A DNA stretch of 64,000 bases from Oceanimonas doudoroffii (GTDB taxonomy: Bacteria; Pseudomonadota; Gammaproteobacteria; Enterobacterales; Aeromonadaceae): assembly GCF_002242685.1 (NCBI RefSeq), contig NZ_NBIM01000010.1:7562-71561 (forward strand), written 5' to 3'. Shown here in pieces: positions 14,210-59,956 of the stretch (position 1 is the stretch's first letter; each line of letters starts with the position of its first letter). Both the position numbers and the translations under genes were made by a program. Under the pieces are notes generated by a model that worked only from the letters and a program-made list of their open reading frames with translations, searched no databases and was not told where the DNA came from.

Positions 14210-14236
14210 TTGAACTGTCAGTTGAATCGTGCAAAT

Positions 14237-14479
14237 ACGTCGGCCAAAGGGCACTGCTTCTTCGGCACACCGTAAACCCATCCTTGGCGCGAAGGGCGCG
14301 CCGAAGCAGACACCCTTTGCCCTCCTTATTCACCACCGAGCTGTCTGAAGATATTTGCTGGCAACACTGGAGTTACCTGAAGCAACGGTAGGGATTGCCG
14401 GAGCCGACCGTCAAATGCCATGGATGGCATTTGCCGAGCGTTCCAAGGATGGGCTCGAAGCGTGTCGGCGCAGGCAACC
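14237..14479 (-). repeat. Mosaic intergenic repeat island A
   Basis: This fills most of the 386-base gap between gltD and mtnN and contains no credible gene. Read on the minus strand it aligns with island B from GGTTGC through CGCCGACACGCTTC to the CAATCCC block, at roughly 80% identity over about 115 bases. It includes a palindrome with 10-bp arms (CAAATGCCAT, 14412-14433). At 14302-14327 it is identical over 26 bases to island C (46757-46782, opposite strand). At 14237-14272 it holds the GTGCCGAAGAAGCAGTG block also found in islands B and C. Confidence 0.85.
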
Positions 14480-14591
14480 CTGCTGGTGCTTCGCATGGCA
14501 GGCCTTCAGGACGAATTCCCCCTTTCTGCAATCGGCCTTTTTCCTTGATGGTGTTACACTTGCGGCCATCATTTTTGCGGAAATCAGTGTT

Positions 14592-21623: not shown

Positions 21624-21793
21624 CACTACCTCGTTAATATCGGTGTCGGCAAAATTATCCAATACCCGACCAATCAGTTCAAGTATTGTGCGACTCAGGC
21701 CGATTCTCGGCCTGAGTGGATTTTGTTATAGTCGGCCCACACCGGCCGCCACGCCGCGGCCTTTCACGCTCATGAACACCAAGGATTATGTGC

Positions 21794-23080
21794 ATGTCCA
21801 AGTCTGACGAACTCTTTAACCAGGCCCGCCGCTTTATTCCCGGCGGTGTCAACTCACCGGTGCGCGCCTTCAGTGGCGTGGGTGGCACGCCCCGTTTTAT
21901 CGAGCGCGCCGACGGCGCCCGCATGTATGACGTGGATGGCAACAGTTACATCGATTACGTGGGTTCCTGGGGTCCGATGATTCTGGGCCACAACGCCGCC
22001 GTGGTAAAAGATGCGGTGATCGAGGCCGTGTCCCGCGGCCTGAGCTTTGGCGCCCCCACCGGGGTGGAAGTGACCATGGCCGAGAAGGTGTCCCAGCTGG
22101 TGCCCTCCATGGAGCAGGTGCGCATGGTCAACTCCGGCACCGAGGCCACCATGAGCGCCATTCGTCTGGCTCGGGGCTTTACCGGTCGCGACAAGATTCT
22201 GAAGTTTGAAGGCTGCTACCACGGTCATGCCGACTGCCTGCTGGTCAAGGCCGGCTCCGGTGCCCTGACCCTGGGCCAGCCCAATTCCCCCGGTGTGCCC
22301 GCCGACTTTGCCAAGCACACCCTGACCTGCACCTTTAACGATCTGGACTCGGTGCGGGCCGCCTTTGAGGCCGCCCCCGCGGACATCGCCTGTATCATCG
22401 TGGAGCCGGTGGCCGGCAACATGAATTGCATTCCCCCCGCCCCCGGCTTCCTGGAAGGCCTGCGCACCCTCTGTGACGAGTTCGGTGCCCTGCTGATCTT
22501 TGACGAAGTGATGTGCGGTTTCCGCGCGTCTCTGGGCGGCGCTCAGGAGCGCTTTGGTGTGAAACCCGATCTGACCACCCTGGGCAAGATCATCGGCGGC
22601 GGCATGCCGGTGGGCGCCTTTGGCGGTCGCCGTGACGTGATGGAGCACCTGGCGCCCACCGGCCCCGTGTATCAGGCCGGCACCCTGTCCGGCAACCCGG
22701 TGGCCATGGCCGCGGGCCTGGCCACCCTGAACGCCATCGGCCAGCCCGGTGTGTACGAAGCCCTGGAGCGAAAAACCAAGGAGCTGGTGGATGGCCTGCA
22801 GGCCGCGGCAGACAAGCACGGTATCCCCTTTACCACCAACCGGGTCGGCGCCATGTTTGGTTTCTTCTTTACCGAGGAGAAAAACATCAGTTGCTACGAG
22901 CAGGTCACCCGCTGCGATCTGGGCGTCTTCAAGCGCTTCTTCCACCTGATGCTGGATCACGGCGTCTACCTGGCTCCCAGCGCCTTTGAAGCGGGCTTTA
23001 TGTCTCTGGCCCACGGTGAGCAGGAAATTGCCGACACCCTGGCCGCCGCCGACAAGGCCTTTGCCGCGCTCAAGGGCTAA
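21794..23080 (+). CDS. hemL: HemL, glutamate-1-semialdehyde 2,1-aminomutase
   Basis: PLP enzyme making 5-aminolevulinate for tetrapyrroles by the C5 pathway. The 428-residue product starts [18 protein letters not shown]. The ATG at 21794 is chosen over one two codons earlier because AAGGA lies eight bases before it. Family motifs include [29 protein letters not shown] and the Schiff-base lysine in [18 protein letters not shown]. The gene connects to siroheme (cysG, also in this window) through uroporphyrinogen. A 17-bp hairpin terminator made from a repeat-family module follows it. Confidence 0.97.
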
Positions 23081-23120: not shown

Positions 23121-23189
23121 GCCGTAACGAAGTCAAAAGCCTGCTGCGAACATTCATGTTGTTCGCAGCAGGCTTTTTTAATGAGTGGC
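23121..23189 (+). repeat. 69-bp hairpin module, copy D
   Basis: This is the same 69-base module as 40867-40935 and the minus strand of 46419-46487. All copies run from GCCGT(A/G)ACGAA to TGAGTGGC with a central inverted repeat containing CGAACAT. It stands alone here, without the other mosaic blocks, 40 bases after hemL. Confidence 0.85.
23135..23177 (+). terminator. hemL terminator formed by the repeat module
   Basis: Perfect 17-bp arms (AAAAGCCTGCTGCGAAC and its complement) enclose a nine-base loop. The 3' arm runs into six T. Confidence 0.9.
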
Positions 23190-23246: not shown

Positions 23247-23672
23247 CTACGCCGGCCGCTGAATCTCCACCAAGGGTGCCTCCAGCAGCTCCACGCTGTT
23301 GCCGTCAGGGTCCATGATAAACACATACCGCTCACAGGTCTGGCCCGGTACCGGGGTCGGCTTGTCGGCCAACAGTCCGGCACCGTGCAGGCTGCTTAAC
23401 GCATTGTCCAGATCCTCCACCTGCAACGCGAAATGCCTGAGCCCCAGCCGATGACCATGGGCCCAGGGCGGTAGCGCCGCCAGATCCGGCTCGTCCGCCG
23501 GGCGAAAACAGTACAACTCCAGTCGCGCCTGCCCCAGGCGCAGGTGACAGATCTGCAGCACGCCCTGCTCATCCTGCCAGCGATAATCCGGCTCAAAACC
23601 GAGCCCCCGGTAAAACCCTTCGGCCGCATCCAAGTTTCGCACGTTCAGGGTTACATGATGAAAAGCAAACAT
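23247..23672 (-). CDS. VOC-family (glyoxalase/bleomycin-resistance fold) protein
   Basis: A 141-residue protein of the vicinal-oxygen-chelate superfamily. It has two βαβββ halves: the first begins FHHVTLNVRNLDAAEGFYRGLGF, with a later H in ICHLRLG, and the second begins LRHFALQVEDLDNALS and ends DPDGNSVELLE. The histidines and glutamate needed for a metal site are present. The ATG at 23672 has GGAGGTG eight bases upstream. The substrate is unknown; lactoylglutathione lyase is possible but not shown. It lies between hemL and mrcB, an insertion relative to E. coli. Confidence 0.8.
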   Translation of the reverse strand: MFAFHHVTLNVRNLDAAEGFYRGLGFEPDYRWQDEQGVLQICHLRLGQARLELYCFRPADEPDLAALPPWAHGHRLGLRHFALQVEDLDNALSSLHGAGLLADKPTPVPGQTCERYVFIMDPDGNSVELLEAPLVEIQRPA

Positions 23673-23751
23673 GGCGGTCACCTCCGTCTCTCTATTCAGC
23701 ATATACGGAGACGGCGGCTTTCACCCGTTTGAAGAAAAGCGGCCCCAACAA

Positions 23752-40606: not shown

Positions 40607-40980
40607 GGTTGCACTCCGCCGACACGCTTCAAGTACTTCCCTGTAACGCTCGAAAATGCCATCCATGGCATTTTATGGTCGGCTTCGGCAATCCCCACTG
40701 CTGCTTCGAGTTACCTCGGCATCGCCTGCATGCAGTCAGGTCAGTACATTCTGAGGAGGGCAAAGGCCCACTGCGCCATGGCCGAAAATTGCTCCTGCAT
40801 GTTCGGCATTCCCGCCATCCCTGGCGGTCAGATGCGCAGTGGAGCCCCCATGGGGCGAGCCTGCTCGCCGTAACGAAATGTTTCAGCCCGACCGAACATT
40901 CAGTATGTTCGCAGCGGGTTGAAACATTGAGTGGCATGTCATCACGGCGTGCCGAAGAAGCAGTGCGCTTTGTCCCACGA
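40607..40980 (+). repeat. Mosaic intergenic repeat island B
   Basis: This fills most of the 518-base gap between hpt and ubiX. No credible gene is present. Blocks in order are: CGCCGACACGCTTC with the AAAATGCCAT palindrome (40617-40696, shared with island A); AGGAGGGCAAAGG (40754-40766, shared with A and C); a 58-base block at 40776-40833 matching the minus strand of 46522-46580 at 57 of 59 positions; a GGCGAGC/GCTCGCC hairpin (shared with C); the 69-bp module; and the GTGCCGAAGAAGCAGTG block (40945-40980, shared with A and C). Confidence 0.88.
40867..40935 (+). repeat. 69-bp hairpin module, copy B
   Basis: Outer arms ATGTTTCA and TGAAACAT, middle arms CCCG and CGGG, and inner arms CGAACAT and ATGTTCG pair around TCAGT. 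The ends GCCGTAACGAA and TGAGTGGC match the other copies. Confidence 0.88.
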
Positions 40981-41014
40981 AGTGCACTGTACCCACAGAC
41001 AACTTGTTTTTACT

Positions 41015-41662
41015 TCAAGCTTCCGGCTTCGAGCCTGGGTTCGCGCCATACCCCCAGCGGCTGACCAGATCCTGATCCACACCCAGGTGATCCAGGATCC
41101 GCGCCACCATAAAATCGACCAGATCGTCGATGGTTTTCGGCTGGTGATAAAAGCCCGGCGCCGCCGGCATTATCGTCACCCCCATGCGCGCCAGTTTGAG
41201 CAGGTTTTCCAGGTGGATCTCGGACAGTGGCGACTCCCGGGGCACCAGGATCAACTGCCCCTTTTCCTTGATCACCACGTCGGCGGCCCGCTCGATCAGA
41301 TTGTCGGAGGCGCCGCTGGCAATGGACGCCACCGTGCCCATGGAGCAGGGGCAGATCACCATGCGTCGGGGCGCCCCCGAGCCCGAGGCCACCGGCGAGA
41401 ACCATTCTTCCTTGCCATAGGCCCGAATTTGGCCAGGCTCGGCGCCGTAACGCTCACACAAATACTCGGCCAGCAGCTCCGGTTTGCCCGGCCACTGTTC
41501 GCCCTGCTCGGTGGCCAGCACCACTCGCGCGGCACCGGACACCAGCAGGTGCACCTGCATGCCGGCTTTTACCAGACACTGCAGCAACGCCAGCGCATAA
41601 GGCGCACCGGAGGCGCCGCTCAGGGCCAGGGTGATCTGCTGATCACGGGCATACTCAGCCAT
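41015..41662 (-). CDS. ubiX: UbiX, flavin prenyltransferase
   Basis: Makes prenylated FMN, the cofactor of the UbiD decarboxylase in ubiquinone synthesis. From the ATG at 41662 it has 215 residues. Family motifs are [16 protein letters not shown] (FMN phosphate binding), the [19 protein letters not shown] block and [14 protein letters not shown] with the glutamate and arginine of the active site. GGAGGTGG precedes the start. It overlaps the end of mpl by eight bases. ubiD is not in the window. Confidence 0.95.
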
Positions 41663-46338: not shown

Positions 46339-46396
46339 GCCTTTAACGCATTAGTGGTGTCTTCAGAGCTGTACAGAGGTCGAACAAAGGCACTAC

Positions 46397-46870
46397 TTCA
46401 CGACACGCTTCGGTGAAGGCCACTCACTAAAAATACCTGCTGCGAACATACTCAATGTTCGGTCAGGCATTTTTACTTCGTCACGGCGAGCAAGCTCGCC
46501 CCATGAACGCTCGGCAAATGTATCTGACCGCCAGGGATGGCGGGAATGCCGAAAATGCAGGAGCAACTTTTCGGCCATGGCATTTGATCGGTCGTGAAGC
46601 AGACACCTTTGCTCTCCCTCTTCGGCATCGACTTCGCCTATAACAACTCTTTGAACGCTTGCGCGAATATCAGGATTGGAAGGAACCTTTCTATTTACAG
46701 AAAAGATATACATTCCCACGAGAAGTGTGGAAACGAGAGGCAACTCGGCAGTTAACAAGGAGGGCAAAGGGTGTCTGCTTCGCCGGCCCTTCGCGCCAGG
46801 GATGGCGAGACGGAGCTTACATGGAGGTATTTACAGCGTGCCGGAGAAGCAGTGCGCTTTGTCCGACGAC
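46397..46870. repeat. Mosaic intergenic repeat island C (two halves in opposite orientation)
   Basis: This occupies most of the 678-base gap between cysG and cysH, where no credible gene is seen. The left half (46419-46619) carries, on the minus strand, the 69-bp module, the GGCGAGC hairpin block (46477-46505), the 59-base block (46522-46580) and a diverged GCAAAGGTGTCTGCTTC block (46595-46619). The right half, on the plus strand, carries a 26-base block identical to island A (46757-46782), a CGCGCCAGGGATGG block and the GTGCCGGAGAAGCAGTG block (46834-46869). Nothing recognisable lies between about 46630 and 46735. Confidence 0.87.
46419..46487 (-). repeat. 69-bp hairpin module, copy C
   Basis: On the minus strand, outer arms TAAAAAT and ATTTTTA, middle arms CCTG and CAGG, and inner arms CGAACAT and ATGTTCG pair around TGAGT. 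The ends GCCGTGACGAA and TGAGTGGC match the other copies. Confidence 0.88.
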
Positions 46871-59887: not shown

Positions 59888-59920
59888 AAAAGGGCCGGTG
59901 AATAAAGATTCACCAGCCCT
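59888..59920 (-). terminator. rplL–rpoB attenuator hairpin
   Basis: Within the 223-base rplL–rpoB spacer, arms AGGGCCGGTGAAT and ATTCACCAGCCCT pair with one mismatch around AAAG and are followed on the minus strand by TTTTGC. E. coli has a partial terminator at this place that sets the rpoBC to ribosomal-protein ratio. Confidence 0.75.
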
Positions 59921-59956
59921 AGCCTGATTGCTCAGGCCGCTAAGCTATAGTCTAGC

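What the first reader, a model, noticed from the sequence alone, without database searches (positions are those of the whole stretch)
23121..23189. A 69-bp hairpin module in three copies with compensatory changes in its stem
The plus strand at 23121-23189, the plus strand at 40867-40935 and the minus strand of 46419-46487 are all exactly 69 bases and share both ends (GCCGT(A/G)ACGAA and TGAGTGGC). They also share the inner CGAAC/GTTCG pairing. The outer stem differs in sequence yet pairs in all three: ATGTTTCA with TGAAACAT, TAAAAAT with ATTTTTA, and AAAAG with CTTTT. Changes on both sides that keep pairing point to selection on a folded RNA or single-stranded DNA. The copy after hemL is a 17-bp perfect terminator hairpin, so the module may have been recruited as a transcription end.
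Basis: seen in the sequence. Interest (0 to 1): 0.72.

Follow-up and report, generated by a model that had tools for sequence, protein, structure and literature searches.

The report
Nested hairpin inside a mobile repeat
The 69-base hairpin is part of a larger, apparently mobile DNA repeat scattered through one group of marine bacteria; its arms change together over evolution so that one particular strand can still fold, and one copy looks like it has become a gene's stop signal.

Summary
The three 69-nt copies are exact; a covariance model finds 12 in this Oceanimonas-like genome and 326 in 23 of 23 genomes of its GTDB genus, but none in the 287 other genomes sampled from the order. The outer stem covaries (12 of 13 pairs), and its wobble is strand-specific: 78 G-U against 8 A-C in 93 distinct stems. 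The inner helix shows no such asymmetry (5 against 6).

The 69 nt are not the whole unit. They are the 3' part of an 82-nt insert placed at ANGG^AN in the loop of the second hairpin of a dispersed element whose core is homologous to the Yersinia miniature insertion sequence YPAL/RU-2. A different 50-51-nt insert sits at the same point of the first hairpin. Short and long orthologues occur at four sites. The hemL copy looks like a deletion derivative with a perfected, terminator-like stem.

Unexpected: short forms carry two CANGGANG loops, the published CsrA/RsmE motif, at near-constant spacing, and neighbouring elements form head-to-head doublets (54 of 55 adjacent pairs). Transcription, CsrA binding and mobility are untested.

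The parts
23121..23189 (+). Copy a, the reported 69-nt hairpin after hemL; 18-bp perfect stem followed by a T run (terminator-like)
   Evidence: R1 58.9 bits
23107..23222 (+). Remnant of the host element around copy a: outer 5' arm (CAG..GCCGTAAC) and 3' arm (GGCGTGTCGG..ACCCTG); hairpins A and B of the orthologous elements are missing. Limits read by eye
   Evidence: comparison with G008, G017, G020 at the same site
40867..40935 (+). Copy b of the 69-nt hairpin
   Evidence: R1 92.4 bits
40854..40935 (+). Insert 2 of copy b (82 nt = 13 nt + 69-mer), between ATGG and AT of the hairpin B loop
   Evidence: absent from the G016 and G020 orthologues
40782..40831 (+). Insert 1 (50 nt) between ATGG and AT of the hairpin A loop of the same element
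   Evidence: absent from the G016 and G020 orthologues
40753..40976 (+). Whole host element of copy b (outer stem, hairpin A + insert 1, hairpin B + insert 2); limits read by eye
40615..40687 (-). Short-form partner element (core), head-to-head with the copy b element
   Evidence: R2 80.6 bits; pair geometry
46419..46487 (-). Copy c of the 69-nt hairpin
   Evidence: R1 90.7 bits
46419..46500 (-). Insert 2 of copy c (82 nt) in the hairpin B loop
   Evidence: absent from the G017 orthologue
46524..46574 (-). Insert 1 of copy c (51 nt) in the hairpin A loop
   Evidence: absent from the G017 orthologue
46381..46620 (-). Whole host element of copy c; limits read by eye
46778..46848 (+). Short-form partner element (core), head-to-head with the copy c element
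   Evidence: R2 74.7 bits; pair geometry

Best explanation
The 69-nt hairpin is the main part of an 82-nt insert fixed in the apical loop of hairpin B of a dispersed, non-coding, YPAL/RU-2-like miniature element of the Oceanimonas/Oceanisphaera/Zobellella group. The host element has a variable outer stem, hairpin A and hairpin B, and often lies as one half of a head-to-head doublet. Shown: the anatomy, the repeat family, short and long orthologues at four sites, the covariation, and one-strand wobble in the insert's outer stem. Inferred: that strand must fold as a single strand while the element is active; I think it most likely that an RNA or ssDNA copy of the + strand is the substrate for the element's spread, rather than that each copy serves its host. 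Long forms probably arise from short ones by insertion or exchange at the conserved loops. Single copies can be co-opted: after hemL a deletion and a perfected stem left what looks like an intrinsic terminator.
For: Dispersed family: 326 matches in 23 of 23 genomes. Four orthologous short/long comparisons. 102 of 127 module copies pass both context tests. Host core matches printed RU-2 at 41.4 bits against 7.9 for the best of 3000 shuffles. Covariation. Outer-stem wobble asymmetry 78:8 and 63:8 events. Host core in 64 of 295 genomes and 17 of 99 genera, module in 8 of 295 and 1 of 99, so the module is the younger layer. No orientation preference to genes speaks for selection on the element rather than on host mRNAs. 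Doublets 54:1.
Against: The inner helix of the module shows no wobble asymmetry (5:6 distinct); host hairpins only a weak one (9:4 and 4:1) and insert 1 the reverse (2:8). No transposase tracks copy number: 5 of 23 genomes without a Y1_Tnp hit carry 1-11 module copies. No replication-strand preference in 19 copies, 11 against and 8 with the fork (3 of 13 G012 copies were not listed). Target-site duplications were not measured. No transcription data.
Confidence: 0.66

Rival explanations
1. Host-level RNA function: the module is kept because transcribed copies act in mRNAs (terminator, 3'-end stabiliser or RNase target), and the covariation reflects selection at each site.
For: G-U excess on one strand is what RNA selection gives. 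Copy a looks like a terminator between convergent genes. YPAL is described as co-expressed with upstream genes (PMC2229807, passage).
Against: No orientation preference to genes. Copy b's stem is not followed by a T run. The automatic scan finds no terminator at copy a. Short and long forms alternate at the same site between related species.
Confidence: 0.22
2. Loop-targeted insertion: inserts 1 and 2 (and a rarer third type) are themselves small mobile hairpins that insert repeatedly at ANGG^AN of hairpin loops.
For: Same insertion point for both inserts; local stem arms kept on both sides at the hemL (G020) and hpt sites. Own copies with insert 1 only (L017-L019) or insert 2 only (L012-L014, hairpin A partly lost in L012). 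A third, different insert in hairpin A in 4 fetched copies.
Against: Insert 1 lies in hairpin A in the 60 of 80 copies printed and insert 2 in hairpin B, so targeting would be position-specific. Both were gained together in the four comparisons. In one search, stem subfamilies of insert 2 appear to follow the host-element type. Copying of the middle part between elements (gene conversion) explains this as well.
Confidence: 0.3
3. DNA-level palindrome repair: template switching within the hairpin makes the arms match, so that compensatory changes arise without selection.
For: Copy a: the 5' arm is the exact complement of the 3' arm and the family's internal loop is gone. 106 direct Watson-Crick-to-Watson-Crick switches in the parsimony count.
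Against: Repair would give no excess of G-U over A-C, yet the outer stem has 78:8. The internal loop GAC/GCAG is kept in most copies of A1.
Confidence: 0.1

Closest known systems
YPAL / RU-2 (Yersinia palindromic sequences; 167-168-bp repeat, also reported in Erwinia carotovora)
   Same: Core of two hairpins with ANGGAN loops and the ..GAGC..GGCGT.. frame: 41.4 bits to the Oceanimonas profile. Small, without transposase gene, intergenic, mobile by short/long or empty/filled comparison.
   Different: Other outer parts; Oceanimonas elements carry nested loop inserts and form head-to-head doublets, neither of which I saw described in the passages read.
Rfam Ysr224 (RF02770), Yersinia sRNA
   Same: Two weak matches on the reverse strand (25.2 and 22.7 bits) over short-form elements, sharing the two hairpins.
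   Different: Far below the gathering score of 70; no sRNA shown here.
REP doublets / REPINs with Y1 (RAYT) transposases (recalled)
   Same: Inverted pairs of short hairpin repeats at fixed spacing.
   Different: Head-to-head units of about 70-nt two-hairpin cores; presence does not depend on a detectable Y1_Tnp.
CsrA/RsmE-binding hairpins of sponge RNAs (CsrB, RsmZ)
   Same: C-ANGGAN-G loops with free N positions, two per element at 23-25 nt in 89 of 92 (consensus from passages of PMC7652899 and PMC3791407).
   Different: Dispersed repeats, expression and binding unknown; the motif is interrupted in copies that carry the inserts.

Membership tests
YPAL/RU-2 miniature insertion sequences | Sequence homology to the printed RU-2 repeat | tested here: met
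   Core only (RU-2 positions 67-117): 41.4 bits, E 4.4e-11, best of 3000 shuffles 7.9
YPAL/RU-2 miniature insertion sequences | Dispersed intergenic copies without a transposase gene, with presence or form varying between related genomes | tested here: met
   intergenic position seen at the three window sites, ORF calls elsewhere crude
YPAL/RU-2 miniature insertion sequences | Target duplications of 3-26 bp at or near dyad symmetry | not tested
   Described in PMC2229807 (passage); insertion ends were not mapped here
YPAL/RU-2 miniature insertion sequences | Full length of about 168 nt with the RU-2 outer parts | tested here: inconclusive
   Only the core aligned; the model covered little beyond it
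Rfam Ysr224 | Score above the gathering cut-off (70 bits) | tested here: not met
   Best 25.2 bits in this genome
REPIN mobilised by a Y1 (RAYT) transposase | Inverted doublet of repeats at fixed spacing | tested here: met
   54 of 55 adjacent pairs head-to-head; gap 88-96 nt in 7 of 8 short-short doublets
REPIN mobilised by a Y1 (RAYT) transposase | Cognate Y1 transposase in the genome | tested here: not met
   5 of 23 genomes have no Y1_Tnp hit at E<=1e-5 but 1-11 module copies; past presence not excluded
CsrA/RsmE sponge RNA | Repeated GGA in ANGGAN hexaloops closed by C-G | tested here: met
   86 of 92 hairpin A and 86 of 92 hairpin B motifs exact CANGGANG. A mechanical best-6-nt-loop search agreed for 87 of 92 hairpin A but only 35 of 92 hairpin B, whose stem is short; RNAalifold gives the hexaloop in both
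CsrA/RsmE sponge RNA | Transcribed and bound by CsrA | not testable with these tools
   Only the presence of CsrA was tested: 23 of 23 genomes
Intrinsic terminator (copy a) | GC-rich hairpin followed by a T run | tested here: inconclusive
   Seen in the sequence, not reported by the scan
Integron attC site; ERIC | Sequence and structure of these families | not tested
   Considered only

The most novel reading that the evidence does not exclude
YPAL-like elements are mobile twin CsrA decoys: transcribed on the + strand, a short-form element presents two C-ANGGAN-G hexaloops 23-25 nt apart, suited to one CsrA dimer, scattered over genomes in at least 17 genera of the order. The loop inserts, including the 69-nt module, are switches that abolish both sites and replace them with a structured hairpin under its own one-strand selection. 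A repeat family would then rewire the Csr network as it spreads and is edited.
Probability: 0.27. Interest if true: 0.82.

Novelty: new variant of a known kind. Interest (0 to 1): 0.6.

Why it matters
It explains a puzzling set of hairpins as layers of a repeat whose layers can be ordered by comparing related genomes, and shows a one-strand folding constraint in an element without coding capacity. It also gives YPAL-type repeats a concrete, testable candidate ligand, CsrA. My searches for that link in print found none: YPAL with CsrA gave 0 papers, and repetitive extragenic palindromic with CsrA, binding site and hairpin gave one review on mRNA turnover, seen as a listing only. If the ligand is right, small mobile repeats would be a source of binding sites for a global regulator.

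Tried and rejected
Rfam: no family at gathering score covers the module or element (only a tRNA and P26 in the window). Permissive scans gave weak hits only: mir-8186 on copy a, Ysr224, STnc540, sraL, STnc320, Trp_leader, mir-4599, SNORD88, Ocean-VII. TwoAYGGAY was considered because of the loops; it did not appear in these scans, and I saw one table line of its paper.

Y1/RAYT transposase as driver: copy number does not follow it. Replication-strand preference: 11 against and 8 with the fork in 19 copies, strands read against sampled GC skew; in G012 alone it was 8 against 2, in G017 3 against 6. Orientation to genes: none; 34 of 114 elements overlapped a predicted ORF, and 13 of 127 copies were dropped for short flanks or missing neighbours. 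Plasmid and phage collections: no match to the element. Oceanimonas with repetitive and palindromic: 0 papers. Cruciform and pure palindrome repair were rejected on the outer-stem wobble, with the inner helix not agreeing. A tree of repeats this short is unreliable, so the counts are rough. attC and ERIC were thought of and not tested.

A first attempt to hand in this report had garbled fields; in repairing it I added the inner-helix result and the automatic-loop result, and lowered the main confidence to 0.66 because of the former.

Full report
WHERE IT IS. The window lies in a genome of 3.83 Mb whose HemL is 97% identical to that of Oceanimonas marisflavi. The same-genus set (23 genomes with this one) includes contigs whose lengths match Oceanimonas, Oceanisphaera and Zobellella records. 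Copy a lies between convergent hemL (21788-23080, +) and a VOC/glyoxalase-like gene (23247-23702, -). Copy b lies between hpt and a conserved 131-aa ORF after mpl. Copy c lies between cysH and cysG.

THE OBSERVATION. All three 69-mers are as described. An exact pattern search gave six copies genome-wide and none for the reversed control. Copies b and c are flanked by further shared sequence; the repeat there is more than 200 nt long.

COVARIATION. On 37 copies (35 distinct; 3 of 40 local hits left out) 12 of 13 outer pairs have changes on both sides and 92.3% of cells pair; shuffled and slid controls stay far below. RNAalifold, left free, finds the same core hairpin. From fetched loci, which were chosen because they matched, I had 127 unique copies (136 rows before removing duplicates) with 93 distinct outer stems: 78 G-U, 8 A-C and 56 other mismatches read on the + strand. 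Parsimony on a rough tree gives 63 changes from Watson-Crick to G-U, 8 to A-C, 50 to other mismatches, and 106 switches between Watson-Crick pairs. The inner helix does not show this: 5 G-U and 6 A-C in 19 distinct stems. RNA and ssDNA cannot be told apart from this.

WHAT THE MODULE SITS IN. Orthologous intergenic regions were compared across the genus. At four sites the same element occurs with and without the module: hemL (short in G008 and G017, long in G020), hpt (short in G016 and G020, long in own and G012), cysH-cysG copy c (short in G017, long in own) and a second cysH-cysG element (short in G012 and G016, long in G008). In the short form hairpins A and B end in ANGGAN loops. In the long form insert 1 (50-51 nt in the window) lies between ANGG and the last loop bases of hairpin A, and insert 2 (82 nt: 13 nt plus the 69-mer) at the same point of hairpin B; the 3' arm of hairpin B is partly altered. 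At hemL in G020 and at hpt the local stem arms around the inserts match the short orthologues, yet both inserts were gained together in each comparison. Repeated insertion and short-tract conversion both remain open.

Of 127 module copies 102 pass both strict context tests; the other 25 are mostly visible variants of the same context, with clear exceptions such as copy a, L156 and L241. Insert 1 had 80 complete unique copies: hairpin B was called filled in 65, short in 5 and undetermined in 10; the 60 that were printed lie in hairpin A.

COPY A. Its left end is probably not a module boundary. The 8-mer GCCGTAAC occurs in the outer arm of the hemL elements of G008, G017 and G020 and at the start of the module in some other copies (for example copy b); in this genome what lies between is missing. 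In addition the 5' arm has become the exact complement of the 3' arm, removing the family's internal loop. The result is an 18-bp hairpin ending in a T run. Deletion and arm repair are inferred from the comparison, not observed.

THE HOST ELEMENT. A profile of 92 short copies matches the printed RU-2 sequence of Yersinia (PMC2759123, passages including Table 1b) with 41.4 bits against 7.9 for the best of 3000 shuffles; only the core aligns. A model of the short core finds it in 64 of 295 genomes and 17 of 99 genera of the order, a lower bound because at most 16 candidates per genome were scored. The 69-nt module occurs in 8 of 295, the 8 same-genus genomes of that sample, and in 1 of 99 genera, with at most 17 candidates scored and stricter filters. 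The module is thus a younger, lineage-specific addition to a widespread repeat. YPAL is described as inserting at or next to dyad symmetry with duplications of 3-26 bp (PMC2229807, passage); I did not measure duplications.

LOOPS. In the 92 short copies the motif is exactly CANGGANG in 86 hairpin A and 86 hairpin B loops; the two N positions vary and the rest is nearly invariant; the motifs are 23-25 nt apart in 89 of 92. RNAalifold places both hexaloops without being told, and 7 of 9 stem pairs covary on both sides. A mechanical search for the best 6-nt loop agrees for hairpin A (87 of 92) but only in 35 of 92 for hairpin B. Eleven copies in ten loci of other genera, the best-scoring ones, each have both motifs; they were found with the same model, so this is not independent. 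The published CsrA SELEX site is RUACARGGAUGU and the RsmE site an ANGGAN hexaloop with free N (PMC7652899, passages; PMC3791407, passages). CsrA is present in 23 of 23 genomes. In long forms the inserts interrupt both motifs. Whether these RNAs exist or bind CsrA is untested.

DOUBLETS. Among 211 merged elements in the loci examined (196 distinct sequences) 55 neighbouring pairs lie within 450 nt: 54 head-to-head (-,+), one (+,-), none on the same strand; all 55 differ in sequence. Same-strand hits closer than 140 nt had been merged, which hides such pairs. In 7 of 8 short-short doublets the gap between cores is 88-96 nt. Copies b and c each lie in such a doublet, with gaps of 180 and 291 nt.

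WHAT SPEAKS AGAINST A SIMPLE STORY. No orientation preference to genes and none to replication direction (8 with, 11 against). No Y1 transposase follows copy number. Wobble asymmetry is weak in the host hairpins (9:4, 4:1), reversed with few counts in insert 1 (2:8), and absent in the module's inner helix.

VERDICT. A real, structured repeat module; a new variant of a known kind (YPAL/RU-2-like miniature elements) whose nested loop inserts, head-to-head doublets and CsrA-like loops are the unexpected features.

Noticed in passing
window 14230-14520: Another doublet between a Pyr_redox/Fer4_20 gene and a PNP_UDP_1 gene: a short-form core at 14399-14472 (+) and, before it, a reverse element that has lost the stretch between its two loops when compared with L037. 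The loops look like deletion points.
   Followed up: partly
window 41010-41405 (-): A 131-aa ORF after mpl, found at 34-79% identity in 18 of the 20 fetched cysG regions of related genomes, without NCBIfam or Pfam match.
   Followed up: partly
L228, L248, L251, L268: A third, different insert (ending ..TTTCCGCGACAT..CGGC) in hairpin A of elements that also carry the 69-nt module.
   Followed up: partly
L290:1730-1801 (-) and L039 near 5015: A diverged or different hairpin B insert (GGCAGCTTGCTGCC.. then ..GGGTAATGGAC..), a weak R1 match in L290 (35.2 bits), suggesting more insert types.
   Followed up: no
hemL 3' region of G003 (L170): Where relatives carry the element, O. baumannii-like G003 has only a 42-nt spacer with an ordinary GC-rich hairpin, and more distant genomes 11-63 nt.
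   Followed up: partly
window 59892-59952 (-): Rfam match to Pseudomonas sRNA P26 (43.1 bits).
   Followed up: no
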